A stretch of DNA of 28,737 nt, taken from IMG/VR virus record IMGVR_UViG_3300009164_000269, positions 1 to 28,737 of that record; one strand, 5' to 3'. Origin of the DNA: a virus. The notes beneath the pieces are model-generated. The model saw nothing but the letters and a program-made list of their open reading frames with translations. It was not told the origin of the DNA and made no database searches. Shown here in pieces: positions 4,339 through 28,415 of the stretch (position 1 is its first letter; the number at the start of each line of letters is the position of its first letter). Position numbers and translations under genes: made by a program.

Positions 4339-4613
4339 TACAACGCACGTACCTCAGTCACATTCATTACTCGAAAACTGCGCCATTCTTGTTTGTCTAT
4401 GCACCAAACGCTCATGGAGTCCACCTTGGCTTCACGTGTGCTTTCTCGTACAGGTGCAGGTGGCAGTTTATCTTTTTGCAAAGTGCAAGGCATAGTACGT
4501 GATTCACCATTGACCTTGGTAAAGGTCACATCGTAGGTACCGCGAGCAAGAAGATCGCGCAACCATTCGTTGCGTTCTGCTGTGGTTGTTCCTTGTAGTT
4601 CTAGTGTTTTCAT
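4338..4613 (-). CDS. WYL_2-like (DUF2693) small protein, 91 aa
   Basis: The sequence fits the short Sm/SH3-barrel family formerly called DUF2693 (now WYL_2): a strand-rich core TYDVTFTKVNGESRTMPCTL, a proline-rich link and SVWCIDKQEWRSFRVMNV near the end. Such proteins are common and short in T4-like and other phages; their ligand is unknown, though the related WYL domain senses small molecules or nucleic acids. The TAATG overlaps at both ends show coupling in the operon. Family assignment is by pattern, not by a search. Confidence 0.7.
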   Translation of the reverse strand: MKTLELQGTTTAERNEWLRDLLARGTYDVTFTKVNGESRTMPCTLQKDKLPPAPVRESTREAKVDSMSVWCIDKQEWRSFRVMNVTEVRAL

Positions 4614-4825
4614 TATTTAACTCCGTAATGTTGTTGAATTTGATTCATGGCATCATCATAGCCGTTTATGTACAAGTTGTACATGCAGTCTCGGACCAAT
4701 AACTCGGCAAACTTTTGGTATGCGTGTTCGCATTCCTCGGCACCTAACCATTTGGGCCAAGGTTCACCTTTAAGATCCACATACAAGCCAGCTTCTTGTG
4801 CAAGTTCGAGAAACAGTGGATTCAT
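4613..4825 (-). CDS. KFAEL-EC-HFGV family small protein, 70 aa
   Basis: One of five related short proteins in this region. The shared plan is an N-terminal helix (L-x-x-x-A-G), the block KFAELLVRDC in the middle, and a short C-terminal helix ending HYGVK (HFGV in sisters). This copy has a Pro/Trp-rich insert, GEPWPKWLG, before the core. The function is unknown; the conserved Cys and His could bind metal, but a helical interface is just as likely. The ATG overlaps the previous gene as ATGA. Many aquatic phages carry such genes in several copies. Confidence 0.75.
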   Translation of the reverse strand: MNPLFLELAQEAGLYVDLKGEPWPKWLGAEECEHAYQKFAELLVRDCMYNLYINGYDDAMNQIQQHYGVK

Positions 4826-5037
4826 TCTTCTTCTCCGATTCCAAAGTGACGTTTAACTGCCCTGCTAGTGTTCCATCCTATTCCCTGAAACAGATTTTTT
4901 TCAATTACAGTAGCACATTCCTGAACAATCAACTCGGCGAATTTTTCTTCATCTAGTTCACTACCAATCCAATGGCCGTACTCATCTTTGATACTAGTGG
5001 TAGCCTGTTCTGCAAGTTGTCCAATTCGTTTGTTCAT
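4822..5037 (-). CDS. KFAEL-EC-HFGV family small protein, 71 aa
   Basis: Second member of the family. It begins MNKRIGQLAEQA, has DEEKFAELIVQECATVI in the middle and ends VKRHFGIGEEE. Compared with its neighbours it has a typical core and a short acidic tail. It is coupled to both neighbours by ATGA overlaps. No function can be given; the repeated presence of one fold with different loops suggests each copy meets a different partner. Confidence 0.75.
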   Translation of the reverse strand: MNKRIGQLAEQATTSIKDEYGHWIGSELDEEKFAELIVQECATVIEKNLFQGIGWNTSRAVKRHFGIGEEE

Positions 5038-5231
5038 TTGTGCCCTTTGTAGATCAATTGATTTACAATGTTCAGATCAAACTGTAGTCTATTAATCTTG
5101 TCTCTGAGAGCATAATATTCGGGACTACTTACATCTCCATCATGTGTAACAATGTCCAAATATAGTCTGGCTGCTTGTTCGTGCGCCTTGGTTAACTCTT
5201 GTTCAATTAAAATTCTTCTATCTTTTAGCAT
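5034..5231 (-). CDS. Hypothetical helical protein, 65 aa
   Basis: A highly charged protein that should form two long helices, possibly an antiparallel coiled coil (LIEQELTKAHEQAARLYLDI and YALRDKINRLQFDLNIVNQL). It lies between family members but lacks the KFAEL core. A good GGAG ribosome binding site precedes the ATG at 5231, and the gene overlaps the previous one by seven bases. I do not recognise it. Small hairpin-helical proteins of this size often act as binding subunits or inhibitors. Confidence 0.7.
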   Translation of the reverse strand: MLKDRRILIEQELTKAHEQAARLYLDIVTHDGDVSSPEYYALRDKINRLQFDLNIVNQLIYKGHK

Positions 5232-5443
5232 TCTTTAACTCCAAAATGTTCTGCTAACCATTTCCTTGCTTGAAAACGTGCTATCAATTGATGCTCACCC
5301 GGATCTAAAACATTCATACATTCTTGCACAATCAACTCGGCAAACTTTTCAATGGCCTTGCGGTCATAGTCATCCATTTCATCCCAACAACCTTGTGCAG
5401 TAAGTCCGGCGTGATACATTAAATCTTCCAATTGTTTGTTCAT
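5225..5443 (-). CDS. KFAEL-EC-HFGV family small protein, 72 aa
   Basis: Third member of the family, with IEKFAELIVQECMNVL in the middle and the end LAEHFGVKEC. The ATG at 5443 is preferred to an upstream TTG because GGAG lies at the right distance before it. An acidic segment (WDEMDDYDRKA) precedes the core. It is followed by the coiled-coil gene with a seven-base overlap and preceded after 17 bases by a small secreted-protein gene. Confidence 0.75.
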   Translation of the reverse strand: MNKQLEDLMYHAGLTAQGCWDEMDDYDRKAIEKFAELIVQECMNVLDPGEHQLIARFQARKWLAEHFGVKEC

Positions 5444-5460
5444 TTTTGACTCCAAAATGT

Positions 5461-5637
5461 TTAAGGCTTCTTTTCTTTTTTAGCTTCGTCTGGAACTAAA
5501 AATCTTTTACAACTTTTTTTGGCAGGCTCTTTTAATGTAGCCTCTGTTTTGGTACATACTCTTTTTGTTTTATAGGCCATGGCAGAAGACATAGGAACCA
5601 AGGTCATTAACAAAATGCACCAAACAAATCTCATCAT
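5461..5637 (-). CDS. Small secreted or periplasmic basic protein with signal peptide, 58 aa
   Basis: A short gene in what would otherwise be a 190-base gap. Its ATG overlaps the stop of the preceding gene as ATGA, and the frame runs to TAA with 58 codons. The product begins MMRFVWCILLMTLVPMSSAMA, a clear signal peptide with an Arg, a hydrophobic core and a small-x-small cleavage site near residue 19 or 21. The mature part is about 37 residues, strongly lysine-rich, with two cysteines (C28 and C43) that could form a disulfide in the periplasm, and ends KKEKKP. No relative is known to me. In an early operon such a protein could act on the host envelope or on superinfecting phage; that is inference. 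Confidence 0.7.
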   Translation of the reverse strand: MMRFVWCILLMTLVPMSSAMAYKTKRVCTKTEATLKEPAKKSCKRFLVPDEAKKEKKP

Positions 5638-5837
5638 TCAAATTTAAAATGTTTTTTAATTAAATCACTGGCTTTATATGGTTCTGCTATATCGGCAATA
5701 TCGGCACATTCGCGCACAATCAACTCGGCGAACTTTTCTGTGTCAAACCGATCTACCATGTAGCTGTCAAAGGCATTGGTACCTCGTTGTTCACGCACAA
5801 TGCATTGAGCCTTTAGTTCTCTAATTCGTTCGTTCAT
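5634..5837 (-). CDS. KFAEL-EC-HFGV family small protein, 67 aa
   Basis: Fourth member of the family: MNERIRELKAQ at the start, FDTEKFAELIVRECADIAD in the middle and IKKHFKFE at the end. It differs in the last residues, where HFGV has become HFKF. It is joined to both neighbours by ATGA overlaps. The function is unknown. Confidence 0.75.
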   Translation of the reverse strand: MNERIRELKAQCIVREQRGTNAFDSYMVDRFDTEKFAELIVRECADIADIAEPYKASDLIKKHFKFE

Positions 5838-6067
5838 GATTTAAGTGTGTCTAATAGTAATTCTTTGCTTCGTTCGTCAAGACTTGTTTGTTCTGCATCG
5901 TATATATATGCAGTCACATGCGAAATGTATTCAACCAAGGCCTTGTTACCTTCGTCGGTCCAATGGCTATAGTAATAGCCCGATGAACTACGATAGTAGA
6001 ATCTTTTATTCTGCATGAGTTCATTGATACCACCATATATGATATCCTTGATCACTTGTTTATCCAT
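5834..6067 (-). CDS. Hypothetical protein, 77 aa
   Basis: The frame is open far back into the ligase gene, but the natural start is the ATG at 6067, one base after the ligase stop. The product has a helical N-terminus (MDKQVIKDIIYGGINELM), a tyrosine-rich middle (RFYYRSSSGYYYSHW) and an acidic helical end. No family is recognised. The tight spacing means it is translated with DNA ligase and may be a partner of it, but nothing in the sequence proves that. Confidence 0.65.
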   Translation of the reverse strand: MDKQVIKDIIYGGINELMQNKRFYYRSSSGYYYSHWTDEGNKALVEYISHVTAYIYDAEQTSLDERSKELLLDTLKS

Positions 6068-6068
6068 A

Positions 6069-7379
6069 TTAGATTTTCTCACCAACCGCAAATCCACGGA
6101 ACCTAATGAATCTCGGGAAGCGCAGGCTATAGGTTCCGTCTTGATTTTGTGTAACAGCATCTGCACGTACTTCAACCACTTCACCTTCTGTACGGCAGTT
6201 CCAAAAATCCTCACGCTGTTGGTCCGTGAATCCACTGCCAACATTGACTCTAATGTCTTTGCCATCATCTCGACCTTCGCATACCAGCGCACCCATTTTG
6301 CCCACATTACGCCCAGTACCCGGTTCTGTGTCTACCACAGTCAAACTCACTTCAATGAATGGTTTGAGTTTAAGCCATGCCACACTGCGTTTGCATTCGT
6401 AGACAGCCGCAGGATCCTTGATCATGATACCTTCGTATCCGCCGGCAATGGCAAGAGCATTGATTTCTCGGTATCTTGCTTGTCCCTCTTCAGAATCTAG
6501 ATCAACCAGTTCTTGTCCTACTACGGTTGCATTGGGCAAACTAGTTTGATGTTCTTCCATGAACGCACCCAAGTGACTGCTACGGAATTCTTGCGTGGCA
6601 TTCCATACACCTCGTTCAAAGTGTTCAAGAGGTATGCAGTCAAACAAGTTGAGTACAGCATCTGTGGCTTGAACATCGCTTTTACGATGTACCTGCTTCA
6701 TCAAGTCTTGAAAACTGCCACTCATGATCTCACCATCGAACACCCAAGGTTCAAGCAAGGTATTGGCAACAGTGGCAAACTGGTCTTTCACATGGGGAAA
6801 GTTCGAGAACTCTTTACCATTACGACTAAACATATCCACACGGCCATCAGGGTATACAATAGTAATAACCCTAACGCCGTCCAGCTTAACCTCGATGAGT
6901 TTTTTCCCTGAGACTTTTGATTCATGATTAGCACTATCATGAGCAAGCTGACACCCAAAAATAGGAATAGCATAACTAGCATACGTCTTCTCCACAACCT
7001 TGTTGATTGTTTTTTCACTCACACCACAACGTAGATCTTTGATCAGTATACGACGATACCAGTTGTTCCATTGTGTGTTAGTGCAGTTTGCCATTAATTC
7101 AGCAAGTGTGTCGCGGGCAAGATTGCCTGTAAACGTACGGTTAATGAAGCCGGTGATAATGAGTGTAAATGAGTCCCAATCTACACCAGGACCATCTGCA
7201 CCTGTACGCTCTGGTACCTGCTTGATGCCAAAGGTGATCATGGGATCCAATGCCAGTCTACAGCCTTCGAAGAATTCGTTGTTACCTTCTTGTGCTTGAA
7301 CAAGAACAATAGCTTCTTTGTCCAACCGACTGGAATGATCTTCAAGAGTGGAAATTACATTTTGGCACGGATCGCTCAT
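6069..7379 (-). CDS. ATP-dependent DNA ligase, 436 aa (T4 gp30-like)
   Basis: It seals nicks in duplex DNA, joining Okazaki fragments and repair tracts in the infected cell. All nucleotidyltransferase motifs are present: motif I KLDGVR with the AMP-accepting lysine K165, a phenylalanine- and arginine-containing strand (MFSRNGKEFSNFP), motif III VFDGEIM, motif IV EGIMIKD and motif V WLKLKP. About 160 residues of helical DNA-binding domain precede the catalytic core and an OB-like domain follows. Length is close to that of T4 ligase (487) and typical of aquatic phage ligases. A ribosome binding site AAAGGT lies before the ATG. It is the third gene of the operon from the promoter at 7849-7877, which points to early or middle expression. 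Confidence 0.95.
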   Translation of the reverse strand: MSDPCQNVISTLEDHSSRLDKEAIVLVQAQEGNNEFFEGCRLALDPMITFGIKQVPERTGADGPGVDWDSFTLIITGFINRTFTGNLARDTLAELMANCTNTQWNNWYRRILIKDLRCGVSEKTINKVVEKTYASYAIPIFGCQLAHDSANHESKVSGKKLIEVKLDGVRVITIVYPDGRVDMFSRNGKEFSNFPHVKDQFATVANTLLEPWVFDGEIMSGSFQDLMKQVHRKSDVQATDAVLNLFDCIPLEHFERGVWNATQEFRSSHLGAFMEEHQTSLPNATVVGQELVDLDSEEGQARYREINALAIAGGYEGIMIKDPAAVYECKRSVAWLKLKPFIEVSLTVVDTEPGTGRNVGKMGALVCEGRDDGKDIRVNVGSGFTDQQREDFWNCRTEGEVVEVRADAVTQNQDGTYSLRFPRFIRFRGFAVGEKI

Positions 7380-7388
7380 GTTAGACCT

Positions 7389-7595
7389 TTAAATAAAGAT
7401 TTCTTTAAGAAACACCATGGCCACTTCGGTGTCATCAATTTCATCTAATGTAGAAGCAGTGATTAGTTCACGCACAATAATTGCGTCAACACCAAATAGT
7501 TCTACAATGACGTCAACCTGTTGTTTGGTTTGTGATTGCCACAGCAAGTCGGCACATTGTCGTTGTCTAGCAGTGAGTCCAGTTAAAGTGATCAT
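7389..7595 (-). CDS. Conserved small phage protein, 68 aa
   Basis: A helical protein with LTARQRQCADLLWQ at the start, QQVDVIVELFG in the middle and an acidic end (LDEIDDTEVAM). I recognise the pattern from small conserved hypotheticals beside replication genes of aquatic phages, but no function is known. It stands between a KFAEL family gene and DNA ligase, nine bases before the ligase ATG, so it is part of the same message. Confidence 0.7.
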   Translation of the reverse strand: MITLTGLTARQRQCADLLWQSQTKQQVDVIVELFGVDAIIVRELITASTLDEIDDTEVAMVFLKEIFI

Positions 7596-7598
7596 TGT

Positions 7599-7826
7599 TT
7601 AATCCTGTTTAAAATGATTTTGTAATGTTTCAATACTTTTTTTAATAGTACATTCAACAATGCCTACTTGGAATGGTGTCATTGCACAATGTGTTGGTGT
7701 AGTTGCCACCACATCAACGCATTCCTGAATCAGGAGTTCTGCAAAACGTTCCAGGTTCTTACCGCCTACCTCAGGGTAGGTAGATCCGCCGGCTTCTAGT
7801 GCAAGCCTTTTAAATTTTTCATTCAT
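7599..7826 (-). CDS. KFAEL-EC-HF family small protein, 75 aa, operon leader
   Basis: Fifth member of the family, separated from the others by ligase: MNEKFKRLALEAGG at the start, LERFAELLIQECVDVV in the middle and LQNHFKQD at the end, with a longer loop holding several Thr and Cys residues. An ATG at 7832 is also possible; 7826 is chosen because the sister proteins start with MN and the AAGGA is better spaced from it. It is the first gene after a strong sigma70-like promoter and so heads a twelve-gene operon. Confidence 0.75.
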   Translation of the reverse strand: MNEKFKRLALEAGGSTYPEVGGKNLERFAELLIQECVDVVATTPTHCAMTPFQVGIVECTIKKSIETLQNHFKQD

Positions 7827-7848
7827 GGTCATGGTCCTTCAATCATTG

Positions 7849-16863: not shown

Positions 16864-18432
16864 TTAGTTTGTTAATGATTTAATGTCGTATGTAAATGAT
16901 GATGGCATGCCGCTATTGTCAGCTATGCATATTATATATGGTTCAGGTATGCCTGAGTCAGAATTAACCTCTACTGATAGTTCTACTCCAACTGGCTCCA
17001 GTTCAGAATATGAGTCATGGAATTCGGCAGTACCTGATATTATGTTTGTTGCAAATTTCATTGTACCAGTTCTTAGTTTTTCATCGCGTTCAACACTGTA
17101 ATTGATTGTACCCTGTCGATACTTGTTTGTCAATGGAATACGATTGATACTGGCATCATTGCATAAAATACTCTTACCAATTGTTTGGTAAGCATTTCCC
17201 AATCTAACAGCACTGACAGCATTGGTGCTGATGCTGTTATTTCCAGTGTGTTGGACCGCTGTGATAGCAATATCTTTTTCCATACTTCTGGTAATAACAT
17301 CTGCCATCGAATAACTGATGTTACCGGCAAACTCAATCACAGGCGATACTGGCGTAGCAGTGTAATTGTTACCAACATTCAGGTAAACATTAAATGCACT
17401 AACAACACCATCTGCATTTGCGTCTGTTACTATACCTTGTTTGGAAACAACATCGAATGCTGAGTTTGTGACTCTGACGCCCATGGTAGATGTTGTATTG
17501 CTTGTTGCATATATACCCTGGTAAACATTGGAAAAGGTACAACGATCGAATACCACATTGTTGATACCCAAAGTGCTATCAATTACCACAGCACTCGAAC
17601 CTTTGTAAAAGTCACATTCAACAAAGTTAATGTTCTTGGATTTAACTGCCTTGGAGGAGATAACAATACTGTGACCAGAATTTACAGATGTGGGTTTATC
17701 AACAAAGCCTTCAAAGCGGCAACGAGTAAACGATACGTCTTTGGCCGAGTCAATCAAGGCCACTGGAAGGGCACCATCGATTCTACGGAACACAATGCCG
17801 GACATTTCGATTGGTCCAATGGTGGCATTGGCCGGTATGGTGTTACCGGAATAGGCATCTAGCCCTGACGAGGTTGTGGTTTTAATCACGCAATTGGCCA
17901 AAGCATTTGTTTGGCTGATTGTGACACTGCCTTTGCCAGAGTTACGGAAAACGCAATAGGGAGGAATTCTTAGATCCTGACTAATTAAATAACTGCCAGG
18001 GTGGAAGTTGATTGTTCGTCTAGTGTACACAGGAGTGGTCAAAGACAGCCGTCCGTAAATTTCGTCAATGGCACGTTGTATGGCTTCGGTATCATCTGTG
18101 AAGCCATCACCGGCAGCACCAAAGTCCTTGATATTGATCACATCATCCAGCTTGTCTTGCAGATTGCGAACAACAGGTACTACACCTGTAGCAACTTGGT
18201 AGCCACCTAAAGTACCTTTGTACTTGTAAGCAGAAATATAACCTGTGATATCAGAATTGGTTGTTAGAACTTCTGTGTTACCTATATAAGGTGCACCTTC
18301 TGCAGTGGTTCCGTTGCCAATGAATAAACGCAACTTGTCAACTGCCCAACCAAATTCGCCAGCACCCAGCTGACCAAGATCTTGTAGTAAACCTCGACGA
18401 ACTTGAATCTGAGAAATTTGTATAACAGCCAT
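16864..18432 (-). CDS. Tail spike protein with pectate-lyase-type beta-helix, 522 aa
   Basis: The N-terminal 60 residues contain QVRRGLLQDLGQLGAGEFGW and RLFIGNGTTAEG, the short repeat seen at the start of many phage tail fibres and spikes, probably for attachment to the particle. From about residue 97 the sequence reads VINIKDFGAAGDGFTDDTEA, the classic opening of the pectate-lyase / polygalacturonase beta-helix. Strand-rich coils follow to about residue 400 and a C-terminal beta domain ends the protein. Such spikes bind or cut surface polysaccharide. The exact substrate and catalytic residues cannot be read. A late-type element CTAAATA lies about 22 bases before the ATG and AAAGGT supplies a ribosome site. 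Confidence 0.85.
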   Translation of the reverse strand: MAVIQISQIQVRRGLLQDLGQLGAGEFGWAVDKLRLFIGNGTTAEGAPYIGNTEVLTTNSDITGYISAYKYKGTLGGYQVATGVVPVVRNLQDKLDDVINIKDFGAAGDGFTDDTEAIQRAIDEIYGRLSLTTPVYTRRTINFHPGSYLISQDLRIPPYCVFRNSGKGSVTISQTNALANCVIKTTTSSGLDAYSGNTIPANATIGPIEMSGIVFRRIDGALPVALIDSAKDVSFTRCRFEGFVDKPTSVNSGHSIVISSKAVKSKNINFVECDFYKGSSAVVIDSTLGINNVVFDRCTFSNVYQGIYATSNTTSTMGVRVTNSAFDVVSKQGIVTDANADGVVSAFNVYLNVGNNYTATPVSPVIEFAGNISYSMADVITRSMEKDIAITAVQHTGNNSISTNAVSAVRLGNAYQTIGKSILCNDASINRIPLTNKYRQGTINYSVERDEKLRTGTMKFATNIISGTAEFHDSYSELEPVGVELSVEVNSDSGIPEPYIICIADNSGMPSSFTYDIKSLTN

Positions 18433-19230: not shown

Positions 19231-19641
19231 TTACGTACGGCGGTTTAATGCTCGTTTAGACATTGCGTCTACTGTGCTTGCTGGATTGGATCGTGCTGTT
19301 GAATCAGTGCCTGTATCCGGATTGTTGATGGTCAAGTTGTCGTTGTAGTCACCAATGGAGGGTTTGATGTAAATGTGCTTGATTTGGGAATCATCATCGT
19401 GAATACTTGTGATTAAGTTTTTCACAGCTGGGTTCTTGTCGTAAGCAGACATTAGCGAATCAATGTTGAACATCTCGGAACCAGGAATGGCACGAACCAT
19501 GTTGACCAAACTGTCAACACGGATCTTGGGTTCTTCGTGTACATCGCCAAAACGATTACGCAAAGTGTCTAACACATTAAGTAAATTATTGGTTGAACGA
19601 TTTGCGTGGTCTGATTCAGCGAGGAATTCGCTTGCTCTCAT
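19231..19641 (-). CDS. Probable capsid-packaged protein with T4-type targeting leader, 136 aa
   Basis: The start MRASEFLAE followed by S has the form of the T4 capsid-targeting leader (MKTYQEFIAE): a short amphipathic helix ending in L-x-E, which the T4 prohead protease gp21 cuts after the glutamate. The rest is unknown: a helical part (LLNVLDTLRNRFGDV) and a polar C-terminal half ending NRRT. The gene overlaps the upstream scaffold-like gene as TAATG and is the last of the late operon from 21366. It is likely to be an internal head protein; its task after injection is not known. Confidence 0.65.
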   Translation of the reverse strand: MRASEFLAESDHANRSTNNLLNVLDTLRNRFGDVHEEPKIRVDSLVNMVRAIPGSEMFNIDSLMSAYDKNPAVKNLITSIHDDDSQIKHIYIKPSIGDYNDNLTINNPDTGTDSTARSNPASTVDAMSKRALNRRT

Positions 19642-22216: not shown

Positions 22217-23296
22217 TTAGCGGGGTTTATTAAAATGTGACTTACCAAAGTTGGGATTAACTAGTTTAATAGGTCCTAAACTGGTGTGAAATACTATGCC
22301 TTCGCCACCAGGTCCTGCAGGTGTTGTTTGATTAAAACCCTGTATTTGACTTTCGAATGCCGCTTCAATTTCTACCTTGACTTCAAATATAGACTGCCAT
22401 ATTTTGTACAAGGAATCTAGACCTGCTTTGTTTTGTGCCATGTAACCAGACGCACCATCACCAATTAAATTTTGATACTGCTTGTTGTTGGCTTGTGTTT
22501 TAAGCCACACATTTATAGTGTCTTTGGTTTGTTCTGTGCGCACATGAGTAAGATATGTGCCTAGATATCCTCTGGCCACATTGTCTAGTCCTGCAACAAA
22601 GTCGTCGGCCAATGTACCATAGTTTGTAATTACACTTTGCAATCCCACAACCCGGCTTAGTAACGCATTTCCGTTGGGCAATGCAAAAGTCATGTTAATA
22701 TTAGGAGGTACCACTGCCACATTGCTGACATTGGCAAGACCTGTTTTGCCATCCCATGGGCGACCTGCAAATCCGTGCACCACAATTAGTGCAACCTTGT
22801 TGGTCATCAGGCGTCCTAGATATGAATCAGCTGGAACAGTGTAGGTAACAGTGGTAGGTTTAAAAATATAGGCGTTGTTCTTGGGTATCATTTCCTCACC
22901 GTCGGCCATCAAGTCGCCCTTGAATATGCCTGTGGTATTGCCAACGCTGGCTTCTAGGCCAGGCCATAGTGCCGCAATCTTTTCGTATAAGTTTGTGCGG
23001 TTGGCACCACGATTGACATCGTAATCTCTCCAACCTTGTGGACTAGTAGGATACACACCTTTGGCAGGCATGTACTTGTCTGTGATAAAGAACTGTCCTT
23101 GTTGATTGCGCCCGAAAAAAAGCGCAATGCCGCCATCCCATTTAATGGTGGCCGCTTGTGGGTTTCTAACTATTTCGGTCAGTGCATTGGCATACTTCTT
23201 GGCCTGTTCAGAACCCTGCAAGATACTATCTTCTGGGTGTGGAATACGTGGCCCATCTGTAATTGCTTCAGCTAGGTACTCTACAAATCGTTTCAT
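22217..23296 (-). CDS. KWDG protein: ligase-like nucleotidyltransferase candidate with capsid-targeting leader, 359 aa
   Basis: The start MKRFVEYLAE followed by A fits the T4-type capsid-targeting leader with a prohead-protease site after E10. The rest has the spaced motifs of the covalent nucleotidyltransferase (ligase and capping enzyme) superfamily: TIKWDGGIALFFG (K52, D54, G55) as motif I, FKGDLMADGEE (D128) in the place of motif III, GEGIVFHT (E332) as motif IV and PIKLVNP (K344) as motif V. It resembles an aquatic-phage family I know as DUF6267, whose function is unknown. The order of motifs is seen; enzyme activity is inferred. The ATG overlaps the nucleotidyltransferase gene as ATGA, in a late operon. 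Confidence 0.7.
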   Translation of the reverse strand: MKRFVEYLAEAITDGPRIPHPEDSILQGSEQAKKYANALTEIVRNPQAATIKWDGGIALFFGRNQQGQFFITDKYMPAKGVYPTSPQGWRDYDVNRGANRTNLYEKIAALWPGLEASVGNTTGIFKGDLMADGEEMIPKNNAYIFKPTTVTYTVPADSYLGRLMTNKVALIVVHGFAGRPWDGKTGLANVSNVAVVPPNINMTFALPNGNALLSRVVGLQSVITNYGTLADDFVAGLDNVARGYLGTYLTHVRTEQTKDTINVWLKTQANNKQYQNLIGDGASGYMAQNKAGLDSLYKIWQSIFEVKVEIEAAFESQIQGFNQTTPAGPGGEGIVFHTSLGPIKLVNPNFGKSHFNKPR

Positions 23297-24951
23297 CTAA
23301 CTACATCACTTATTTGTCTAAACCAAGCGGCAGTTCCAGGCTGTACAGTTTCAGGCAAGTTAATTATACCCTTGGCAGCATCTTGACGAGCTTGTGCCAA
23401 TTTACCTTCCCTGTCGGGGTCACTTTCCAGTGCTTTTAAGGCAGATCTGACGCTGTCTAGGGCGTTTTCTTTGGCTTTAGGACCAAATAAAACCCGGGCT
23501 ACTTCTTTGCGTGTTCTAGCTACAACTTCGTTTGTGTCTCTATTGAGAAGTTTTGCGGCAAAAGCATCAAACTTTAAATTCAAATGTTTAGCAATACTGT
23601 TCATCAATATAAACAGATGTGATCCTTTGAAGTCTGGGTCGTTGTACATGCCACGAGGACCGTGTTGATGCCAAGGTGCAACAATGTTGACATCATGGAT
23701 GACCATTACGTCTACTTGTGCTATTTTAAGTTCTTTTGTATCTTGTTCACGATATTCAACACCAATGCTGACGTTGCGTCCGTTGGCGTTGGCTTCAATG
23801 CCTTGCTTTTCAAAATGTGCTTTTAGGATCTGTTTGGCCTTTTTAACAGGATCCGGAGCATCTTGTGTGTTGGTTAGATCGATCAAGTCTTGTGCCTCGA
23901 TCATGATATCAATATCGCCTGATTGTACTTTATAGCCAGCAGAACCTATATCAGTGTGTAGGTTTTTTAGTAGTTCTGCTGGCAGTGCTTTTTTTGCTAG
24001 ATCAACAACTCCTGCAACGTCTTGTTGCTTTACTGGTGTTGATCTAGCAATGGCATTGCCACCTTCTTTTAATTGTTTCCTAGATTCGTTAGTTGTTTTC
24101 TTCGGACGTATGTTTGTTACGTTGGTGGGTCTGTTAGGGTCATTAGGATCAGGCGGAGGTGTATTATCAAATCCTGTTGGTCCAACTGTTGGCACTGGTG
24201 TATTAGTTGCCACTGGTGCCGGGTTAACTGGTGCTGGATTCACAGGTGCTGTATTTACTGGTGCCTGCGATTGTGGTTGTGGTGTTTGTACACGAGTGTT
24301 TGATTGTAGATTTAATGTTGCCGCAGACGGCACATCTGGATCCTTGCCTTGTCCAGCCAAGAACGCTTTCTTAACGTCAAGGTATCTTCTGTTCAACGAA
24401 GTCACGTCAGCTGGGTCAGCTATTACATTTGAATCTTCATCACGCCACTGCCTACTTGCTTGGTCGTACTCATAAAAATAACCATTAGGCATTTGAATAT
24501 TTGCATCCGTTTTAGGAAAAGCAAAACCTGTTCTAAGCCCTGCAGTGCCTGGTTGTGCAACCGGAGCAGCCTGTGTACTAACTGTTTGGAAATATTTTTG
24601 TGTGCTGGCTGCCAAGTAGTCGTACATGCTACGTGGGTTATCACGTGCCACGCTGGGCGGGGGTAAAACTAAATTTGGTTTATCACGGAATCTGTTTTTG
24701 GCCCAGTTTGCCATCAATTGATTTAACTCAACTGCTGTCATCTGTGGATAGTTTCTTAGATCGGCATTCCAATCAGCAAACATCCTGTCAACAATTTCTT
24801 TTTGTACTTTGCCCGAGGCCTGTGCGGCTTTTTCACCTTGGTACCCTGCTATTGCGCCTTTTACACCACCGGTCTTTAGACCTTGAACGCCTGCACCTAT
24901 TTTCCGTGCAAAGTCCAAAGGACCTTCTACGATAATTTCATTAGTTTTCAT
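23293..24951 (-). CDS. Polymerase-beta-type nucleotidyltransferase with capsid-targeting leader, 552 aa
   Basis: Three parts can be seen. Residues 1-9 (MKTNEIIVE, then G) fit a capsid-targeting leader with a prohead-protease site. Residues 10-220 form an N-terminal domain with no known match. Residues 220-290 are a Pro-rich linker with four copies of a five-residue APVNP-like unit, followed by KQLKE/GG (296/297), a second site of the protease type. Residues 310-490 form the catalytic part: DIGSAGYKVQSGDIDIMI holds GS (336-337) and the pair D346/D348, and IAQVDVMV holds D414, the three acidic residues of the DNA polymerase-beta nucleotidyltransferase fold. The substrate is unknown; the fold adds nucleotides to RNA, protein or small molecules. 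It overlaps its neighbours by eleven and four bases. Confidence 0.8.
   Translation of the reverse strand: MKTNEIIVEGPLDFARKIGAGVQGLKTGGVKGAIAGYQGEKAAQASGKVQKEIVDRMFADWNADLRNYPQMTAVELNQLMANWAKNRFRDKPNLVLPPPSVARDNPRSMYDYLAASTQKYFQTVSTQAAPVAQPGTAGLRTGFAFPKTDANIQMPNGYFYEYDQASRQWRDEDSNVIADPADVTSLNRRYLDVKKAFLAGQGKDPDVPSAATLNLQSNTRVQTPQPQSQAPVNTAPVNPAPVNPAPVATNTPVPTVGPTGFDNTPPPDPNDPNRPTNVTNIRPKKTTNESRKQLKEGGNAIARSTPVKQQDVAGVVDLAKKALPAELLKNLHTDIGSAGYKVQSGDIDIMIEAQDLIDLTNTQDAPDPVKKAKQILKAHFEKQGIEANANGRNVSIGVEYREQDTKELKIAQVDVMVIHDVNIVAPWHQHGPRGMYNDPDFKGSHLFILMNSIAKHLNLKFDAFAAKLLNRDTNEVVARTRKEVARVLFGPKAKENALDSVRSALKALESDPDREGKLAQARQDAAKGIINLPETVQPGTAAWFRQISDVVR
24205..24264 (-). repeat. 15-bp tandem coding repeat, four copies
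   Basis: Encodes APVNT-APVNP-APVNP-APVAT in the linker of the nucleotidyltransferase protein. The DNA copies are imperfect at third positions. It is a flexible spacer, prone to change in copy number. Confidence 0.7.
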
Positions 24952-25189
24952 CTTTGAGCTTTCTTATACCTCTAACAAACTTTGAGGAATCTCCGCTACG
25001 GATGCTGTTAAGTAGCCTGCGCTCGAGTTCGCCTGCAGTTTCATCGTCGTAGTTTTCCTTGATGAAACTCATCAAGTTGATTGCGCTTTGAATAACGTTG
25101 GCAGCACGACTCTCCACAAAGTTTTCTCTATCCCTGTGGGTGGGTATGCTATCCAATTCAGCCAACAGACTTTTAGTGCGTTTTTGCAA
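24941..25189 (-). CDS. Conserved small phage protein, 82 aa
   Basis: An all-helical protein with RAANVIQSAINLMSFIKENY in the centre and ELERRLLNSIRSGDSSKFVR and GIRKL near the end. I recognise this pattern from aquatic T4-like phages, where it is a frequent small hypothetical. The start is a TTG, chosen because GGAGG stands exactly six bases before it and no ATG is near. A perfect T4 late promoter lies 20 bases upstream. It heads the operon of the two capsid-targeted enzymes and overlaps the next gene by eleven bases. Confidence 0.75.
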   Translation of the reverse strand: MQKRTKSLLAELDSIPTHRDRENFVESRAANVIQSAINLMSFIKENYDDETAGELERRLLNSIRSGDSSKFVRGIRKLKDEN

Positions 25190-25209: not shown

Positions 25210-25217
25210 TATTTATA
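25210..25217 (-). promoter_or_regulatory. Perfect T4-type late promoter TATAAATA
   Basis: TATAAATA (25217-25210) on the minus strand, followed by ATAC. It is identical to the T4 late promoter consensus, and the predicted leader of about 15 nt holds GGAGG before the TTG start. It drives the 82-residue gene and the two capsid-targeted proteins. Confidence 0.8.
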
Positions 25218-27707: not shown

Positions 27708-28415
27708 TTATTTGGATTTGATTTTTGCCAGTCCGAGGAATTCAAATGTTTTGAGATACATCCACCCTATGTCAAATTCAAACCATTTGCGGCTAAATTT
27801 AGAACTTGCCGGATCCAGGTGGTGATTGTTGTGTAGTTCTTCACCACCGATCCATATGCCAATCGGCACAATGTTTCGGGAATGATCACTGGTATCGCCA
27901 TTGCGGTATCCCCACCAGTGACCAACACCATTGACCACACCTGCGGCCCAGAATGGGATCCATATCATTTGGATGCCCCATATTACAAAACCCAGCCAAC
28001 CAAACAATAACAAGTCAATTAGTAACATGAGCAAGATACCCACACGACTGTGCCGGGTGTAGACGTTCTGTTCCATCCAATCACTGGGTGTACCAGCACC
28101 ATATTGCGTGACCATTTCGGTGTCCTGGCTGGCAGCCTGGTACAGGCCAGCACCCGTAAACAGCACACGCCAGAAACCGTACACATGCGGACTATGAGGA
28201 TCTCCTGTTTTTTCTGTGTATCTATGATGTTTTCTATGTACTGCTACCCATTGTTGTGTTACCATGCCTGTTGTGAGCCAGAGCCAAAAGCGCATCAAAT
28301 GAGATAATACAGGATGAAACTCAACACCTCTGTGGGCTTGGCTTCTGTGCAGATAAAGTGTTACGGATACAATTGTTAAATGTGTGGCAAGTAGTGTAAA
28401 GATAATAGCAGTCAT
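27708..28415 (-). CDS. Membrane fatty-acid desaturase, 235 aa
   Basis: It puts a double bond into acyl chains, probably at delta-9, using a di-iron site at the membrane. The three histidine boxes are all there: HRSQAH (H23-H28), HRKHH (H60-H64) and HNNHH (H195-H199), and GHWWGYRN (H166) is also typical. Hydrophobic segments lie at about 4-20, 40-55, 80-95 and 125-165. At 235 residues it is a short bacterial or viral form without a cytochrome b5 domain. The ATG at 28415 is only four bases after a GTAAATA element. Changing host lipid fluidity during infection is the plausible purpose. Confidence 0.93.
   Translation of the reverse strand: MTAIIFTLLATHLTIVSVTLYLHRSQAHRGVEFHPVLSHLMRFWLWLTTGMVTQQWVAVHRKHHRYTEKTGDPHSPHVYGFWRVLFTGAGLYQAASQDTEMVTQYGAGTPSDWMEQNVYTRHSRVGILLMLLIDLLLFGWLGFVIWGIQMIWIPFWAAGVVNGVGHWWGYRNGDTSDHSRNIVPIGIWIGGEELHNNHHLDPASSKFSRKWFEFDIGWMYLKTFEFLGLAKIKSK

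What the first reader, a model, noticed from the sequence alone, without database searches (positions are those of the whole stretch)
22217..24951. Two neighbouring nucleotidyltransferase-superfamily proteins carry T4-like capsid-targeting leaders
MKTNEIIVE/G and MKRFVEYLAE/A have the form of the T4 leader MKTYQEFIAE, which directs internal proteins (Alt, IPI-III) into the prohead and is cut by gp21 after (L/I)xE. Both genes belong to an operon behind a perfect TATAAATA late promoter, as needed for packaging. One has a polymerase-beta-type active site, the other ligase-type motifs. Together they look like an injected enzyme pair that could modify host RNA, tRNA or protein, in the way T4 Alt ADP-ribosylates RNA polymerase. 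The pairing, timing and leader are seen; the injected role is inferred.
Basis: partly seen in the sequence, partly recalled or inferred. Interest (0 to 1): 0.72.

Follow-up and report, generated by a model that had tools for sequence, protein, structure and literature searches.

The report
Head-targeted phage polymerase–ligase enzyme pair
A T4-like phage makes, late in infection, two neighbouring enzymes that look like a gap-filling polymerase and a ligase and that carry the kind of cleavable tag T4 uses to load proteins into its head, so the virus may inject a ready-made nucleic-acid repair kit along with its DNA.

Summary
Both ORFs lie where stated, overlap by ATGA, and sit behind a late promoter whose [AC]TAAATA core precedes the operon's first gene in 64/64 relatives. 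P0001 (MKRFVEYLAE|A) matches T4's capsid-targeting sequence at every mapped position (4, 7, 8, 10). Among 1851 gene calls that strict pattern hits only this family; in a T4 stretch it hits only IPII and IPIII. P0002 (MKTNEIIVE|G) keeps only the gp21 cut motif, a weaker leader. P0001 is DUF6267; its model resembles mainly polynucleotide ligases. P0002's C-terminal domain has an invariant DxD…D site and resembles PolX DNA polymerases. In dozens of relatives the two are fused, with (L/I)xE at both N-terminus and inter-domain linker, as if prohead protease separates them. A profile-confirmed NTase homologue in syntenic PA5oct is annotated as MS-detected in virions. Packaging is likely; an injected end-repair/gap-filling role fits better than Alt-like modification, but substrate, cleavage and injection are unproven. 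Against: cyanophage DUF6267 copies lack leaders, PA5oct's NTase has no leader, and leader-like starts are not significantly enriched among PA5oct virion proteins.

The parts
25210..25217 (-). late promoter core TATAAATA
   Evidence: [AC]TAAATA in the same place in 64/64 distinct relatives
24941..25189 (-). first gene of the operon, 82 aa, phrog_11854 virion structural protein
   Evidence: E 1.5e-16; PA5oct gp259 and Atu_ph07 gp068 occupy the same place
23293..24951 (-). P0002, 552 aa: leader, N-terminal region with Pro-rich stretch (about 1-295), PolX-like nucleotidyltransferase domain
24925..24951 (-). P0002 leader MKTNEIIVE, predicted gp21 cut after E9
   Evidence: same form M[KR]xN[ED][IVL][IVL]xE in 9 gene calls: P0002 relatives or genes at the same kind of place, and PA5oct gp333 next to the portal
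24064..24072 (-). internal LKE|GGN site (L294-E296) at the start of the nucleotidyltransferase domain, predicted second cut
   Evidence: alignment A1: [LI]xE directly before GG in the rows that extend past it; leaderless homologues begin M[GS]G at this point
23296..24063 (-). PolX-like nucleotidyltransferase domain (residues 297-552)
   Evidence: model pLDDT 86.9; PolX Z 8.6-9.3
23908..23922 (-). SGDID with catalytic carboxylates D346 and D348; third carboxylate D414 at 23710-23712
   Evidence: the three Asp are invariant in 29 sequences
22217..23296 (-). P0001, 359 aa, DUF6267 ligase-like protein
   Evidence: PF19782 E 6.8e-20, 72 bits over cut-off 27
23267..23296 (-). P0001 leader MKRFVEYLAE, predicted gp21 cut after E10
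   Evidence: only residues 1-15 fall under pLDDT 50 in the model
23132..23143 (-). KWDG, covalent nucleotidyltransferase motif I (K52)
   Evidence: WDG invariant, K in 90% or more of 33 sequences
19231..19641 (-). third leader-like protein of the same late block, MRASEFLAE|SD, 136 aa
   Evidence: PA5oct gp246 MKIKDILVE|SD in the corresponding place is annotated ESI-MS/MS

Best explanation
P0002's C-terminal domain and P0001 are the two halves of a late-made polynucleotide end-repair module: a PolX-like nucleotidyltransferase that adds nucleotides at an end or gap, and a KxDG ligase-type enzyme that joins the ends. T4-type leaders place them in the prohead core, the gp21 prohead protease cuts after (L/I)xE and frees the enzymes, they stay in the head with the DNA, and they are delivered at infection to repair either nicked or gapped incoming phage DNA or host tRNA broken by defence nucleases. 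Shown: leaders, late operon, folds by prediction, active-site conservation, fusion in relatives. Inferred: packaging in this phage, cleavage, injection, catalysis, substrate.
For: Leader of P0001 matches T4 CTS at all mapped positions and the pattern is specific. [LI]xE in the first 17 residues in 12/12 non-redundant proteins of the non-fused DUF6267 set (0.8 expected; the set holds one truncated fusion, L035), 14/15 fused proteins (1.4 expected) and 14/14 inter-domain linkers (1.1 expected), with the middle residue varying. gp21 (PF03420) and gp23 are present in relatives' genomes. PolX-like fold, Z up to 9.3, and ligase-like fold, best Z 7.1 with ligases filling nearly the whole list. Fusion of the two domains in dozens of relatives. 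NTase profile A1 finds PA5oct gp253, E 3.4e-17, annotated structural protein, ESI-MS/MS, in a syntenic operon of mostly MS-detected proteins; PA5oct gp256 beside it carries a KxDG motif. In Atu_ph07 the same pair (gp065, gp066) lies in CDS 31-76, which holds 29 MS-identified virion proteins. Late promoter conserved.
Against: Cyanophage DUF6267 proteins start at the domain with no leader. PA5oct gp253 is in virions without a leader, and its KxDG neighbour gp256 is not marked as MS-detected. Leader-like starts are not significantly enriched among PA5oct MS-detected proteins: 4/89 against 5/347, p 0.09, and that MS list includes metabolic enzymes, so it has carry-over. P0002's leader lacks the targeting aromatics. 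Many fused proteins have only 4-9 residues up to the cut motif, short for a CTS. The p-values treat related sequences as independent. Z values near 7 for the ligase model are in the range that can be unspecific; no solved-structure sequence match.
Confidence: 0.55

Rival explanations
1. Alt-like injected effectors: the enzymes are packaged and injected but transfer nucleotides to host proteins or RNA to take over or disarm the host.
For: Leader and head targeting as above. In Atu_ph07 the same locus continues into a tandem run of leader-bearing proteins such as MRWHQLIE|N and MKWHQLTE|A that look by eye like ADP-ribosyltransferases. Polβ-type NTases are proposed to modify proteins in other conflict systems (PMC5512222).
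Against: Top structural matches are PolX polymerases and polynucleotide ligases, and the two are fused, which suits end joining better than two unrelated protein modifications. Pfam did not recognise the Atu_ph07 run as ADP-ribosyltransferases.
Confidence: 0.17
2. Late-made repair enzymes that act in the producing cell and only co-purify with or associate to virions; the leaders are incidental N-terminal extensions.
For: Cyanophage copies lack the leader; PA5oct MS list contains replication and metabolic enzymes; leader enrichment not significant there.
Against: Strict CTS pattern found only in this family, 14 against 0.04 expected; (L/I)xE kept at three separate places while the neighbouring residues change.
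Confidence: 0.18
3. Structural or assembly role: the proteins are head-core components whose enzyme folds have been kept for binding nucleic acid, not for catalysis.
For: First gene of the operon and most of its PA5oct counterparts are virion proteins; one paralogue in L007 has motif I Lys replaced by Arg.
Against: Catalytic carboxylates invariant in 29 NTases and WDG invariant with K nearly so in 33 ligase-like proteins.
Confidence: 0.1

Closest known systems
T4 internal proteins IPI-IPIII and Alt (capsid targeting sequence, gp21 processing)
   Same: N-terminal leader of about 10 residues; P0001 matches T4 at positions 4, 7, 8, 10; (L/I)xE cut motif; late expression
   Different: Cargo is a PolX-like/ligase-like pair rather than small internal proteins or an ADP-ribosyltransferase; extra (L/I)xE sites stand between domains; P0002 leader lacks the targeting aromatics
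RlaP nucleotidyltransferase plus RNA ligase repair systems of phages (PMC7824862)
   Same: A Polβ-superfamily NTase works next to a ligase, proposed to restore lost nucleotides before sealing
   Different: RlaP profile PF10127 does not match ours; RlaP is a separate gene elsewhere in Atu_ph07 and Lak; no head-targeting leader is described for it in the passages read
PolX DNA polymerases, including ASFV PolX
   Same: Fold (ASFV PolX Z 9.2, rmsd 3.2, 157 of 177 residues), catalytic DxD and third Asp
   Different: No Pfam PolX profile match; about 50 C-terminal residues untested; that ASFV PolX is carried in virions with a ligase is from memory, not checked here
DUF6267 (PF19782; T4-GC 71 of cyanophages)
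   Same: P0001 is a member, well over cut-off; the family is found in 467 phage records with the Syn1 copy as query
   Different: Cyanophage copies read here have no leader, and no NTase partner was found in those genomes; there it sits beside a cytidylyltransferase, T4-GC190, whose product was found in S-SM1 virions

Membership tests
T4-type CTS-bearing internal protein | 10-residue N-terminal leader with targeting residues 4 and 7 and processing residues 8 and 10 (P0001) | tested here: met
   P0001: F4, Y7, L8, E10
T4-type CTS-bearing internal protein | same leader feature (P0002) | tested here: not met
   N4 and I7 instead of aromatics; 9 residues; only the IVE cut motif is kept
T4-type CTS-bearing internal protein | prohead protease of the gp21 kind in the same phage | tested here: inconclusive
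   found in relatives G002 and G003; the window is a 28.7-kb fragment without recognised head-shell genes
T4-type CTS-bearing internal protein | leader cut off and protein present in virions | not testable with these tools
   no proteome of this phage; NTase homologue PA5oct gp253 is annotated ESI-MS/MS
DUF6267 (PF19782) | profile score over the curated cut-off | tested here: met
   72.2 bits against 27
ATP-dependent polynucleotide ligase superfamily | motif I KxDG and the nucleotidyltransferase fold | tested here: met
   KWDG; ligases fill nearly the whole VIA-align list, best Z 7.1, rmsd 4.1, 179 aligned; the Z is middling
ATP-dependent polynucleotide ligase superfamily | sealing activity on DNA or RNA | not testable with these tools
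   needs purified protein
DNA polymerase X | palm with DxD plus third Asp in a PolX fold | tested here: met
DNA polymerase X | recognised by a Pfam PolX profile | tested here: not met
   no such match up to E 1
RlaP (PF10127) | profile match | tested here: not met
   no match; none in relatives G001-G005 that carry the NTase

The most novel reading that the evidence does not exclude
The prohead protease acts as a processing enzyme for an enzyme polyprotein: it removes the leader and also cuts between a PolX-like polymerase and a ligase, so that the phage head matures with a free gap-filling and sealing kit that is injected and mends the incoming genome before any phage gene is expressed.
Probability: 0.27. 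Interest if true: 0.82.

Novelty: new variant of a known kind. Interest (0 to 1): 0.62.

Why it matters
T4-like phages load their heads with proteins of mostly unknown purpose. If this pair is packaged, it would link DUF6267, a family in hundreds of marine phage genomes with no known function, to a concrete and testable chemistry, and would show a phage bringing nucleic-acid repair enzymes with it instead of making them after entry.

Tried and rejected
(1) Enrichment of leader-like starts among all MS-detected PA5oct proteins: not significant. (2) Exact TATAAATA as the conserved promoter: only 3/64; the conserved form is [AC]TAAATA. (3) Sequence search of solved structures with both alignments: no meaningful match. 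(4) NTase as an RlaP member: profile negative. (5) tblastn of P0002 and of the L014 NTase against phage records: no match; the NTase relatives were reached only through divergent copies and the profile. (6) P0002 N-terminal region against PA5oct gp257: a shared NEGPLD[FW]-type stretch, but the local score is reached by about 3% of shuffles, so only suggestive. (7) DUF6267 itself in a virion proteome: the supplement of PMC3037559 and the PA5oct paper could not be read. (8) Atu_ph07 leader array as ADP-ribosyltransferases: no Pfam support. (9) Literature on DUF6267: no paper in the library names it.

Full report
WHAT IS THERE. The window is a 28.7-kb fragment of a virus record. The two reported genes are on the minus strand at the stated coordinates and start MKTNEIIVE|G (P0002, 552 aa) and MKRFVEYLAE|A (P0001, 359 aa). 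They overlap by ATGA and follow an 82-aa gene of the virion structural family phrog_11854. TATAAATA at 25210-25217 is not unusual as an octamer, but in all 64 distinct relatives [AC]TAAATA lies in the 50 nt before the same gene, 0.9 expected. Late expression is well supported.

LEADERS. In T4, the first ten residues of IPIII target it to the head; residues 4 and 7 matter for targeting, 8 and 10 for processing, and gp21 cuts after L/I-x-E (PMC9026906). P0001 has F4, Y7, L8, E10. The strict pattern occurs 14 times in 1851 gene calls, every time in this family, with 0.04 expected from shuffled N-termini; in a T4 stretch it picks out IPII and IPIII among 30 genes. More distant copies keep the form with other residues: MKTYIDFLVE|A, MKTYTEYLVE|A. 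P0002 keeps only the cut motif; its form MKxN[ED]IIxE recurs in its own relatives and in PA5oct gp333, an MS-detected protein just after the portal gene and two genes before the head protease. In the P0001 model, pLDDT 90.4, only residues 1-15 are under 50, so the leader hangs off the fold.

A SECOND LAYER OF SITES. A search with the neighbouring helicase gave 80 relatives. In dozens of them the two enzymes are one protein of about 640 aa, NTase first and DUF6267 second. (L/I)xE is kept before the GGN that opens the NTase domain and in the linker before DUF6267: 14/15 and 14/14 non-redundant fused proteins, 1.4 and 1.1 expected. In P0002 the same LKE|GGN stands at residues 294-299. Several homologues without an extension begin M[GS]G at just this point. 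This is what one would see if the prohead protease released the two enzymes. Related sequences are not independent, so the p-values overstate the case.

THE ENZYMES. P0001 is DUF6267, with KWDG motif I; its model matches mostly RNA and DNA ligases, best Z 7.1 (Foldseek alone was weak). The P0002 domain has an invariant GDxD and a third Asp; its model, pLDDT 86.9, matches PolX polymerases, pol lambda Z 9.3 and ASFV PolX Z 9.2 over 157 of 177 residues. No PolX or RlaP sequence profile recognises it. The known idea nearest to this is RlaP plus RNA ligase repair (PMC7824862). Fold similarity does not prove function.

VIRION EVIDENCE. PA5oct has the same operon: helicase, 82-aa homologue, further virion proteins, a KxDG protein (gp256), the NTase (gp253), then counterparts of the window's next genes (the correspondence of the small genes rests on order and by-eye similarity). 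The NTase profile finds gp253 at E 3.4e-17, and it and most neighbours are annotated ESI-MS/MS. gp256 is not. The PA5oct list includes metabolic enzymes, and gp253 has no leader. In Atu_ph07 the pair lies in a block of 46 genes with 29 MS-identified proteins (PMC6102473); which ones could not be read. In cyanophages DUF6267 has no leader; its neighbour T4-GC190 was found in S-SM1 virions (PMC3037559), and in Syn9 the next gene starts MKKFSAFLSE|A. In Melnitz and HTVC008M DUF6267 does have leader-like starts.

MECHANISM AND RIVALS. The best reading is a polymerase-plus-ligase end-repair pair put into the head. Whether the substrate is the incoming phage genome (PolX points that way) or damaged host tRNA (the RlaP precedent and the RNA ligases at the top of the ligase list point that way) cannot be told. 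An Alt-like role, action in the producing cell, or a purely structural role are the rivals; each has some support and is scored above.

VERDICT. Packaging is likely. A delivered polymerase-ligase repair pair is the best reading at about 0.55.

Noticed in passing
L022:11502-13436, L030:6933-8834 and many others: NTase and DUF6267 fused in one protein of about 640 aa with (L/I)xE at the N-terminus and in the linker
   Followed up: yes
L111:7555-11732 (Agrobacterium phage Atu_ph07): tandem paralogues with leader-like starts M[RK]WxQLxE in the same locus; they look by eye like ADP-ribosyltransferases, no Pfam support
   Followed up: partly
window 19231-19641 (-): third leader-like gene MRASEFLAE|SD in the late block; PA5oct counterpart by position, gp246, annotated ESI-MS/MS
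   Followed up: partly
window 4613-7832 (-): five small paralogous-looking proteins sharing a FAEL[IL][VI][QR][ED]C stretch
   Followed up: no
window 27708-28415 (-): fatty acid desaturase gene (PF00487, E 1.4e-14) in a phage
   Followed up: no
window 16864-18432 (-): tail-spike-like protein with pectate-lyase fold domain and a sub-cut-off match to the major tropism determinant N-terminal domain
   Followed up: no
L007:3984-5189: second DUF6267 paralogue with motif I Lys changed to Arg (KARWDG), while L004 and L008 copies keep Lys
   Followed up: no
L110:7613-9565, L112:10948-11805, L134:3905-5053: cytidylyltransferase-like and other proteins beside DUF6267 in marine and freshwater phages also start with leader-like sequences (MKKFSEIIE|A, MKLFNQFFKE|A, MKKFSAFLSE|A)
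   Followed up: partly
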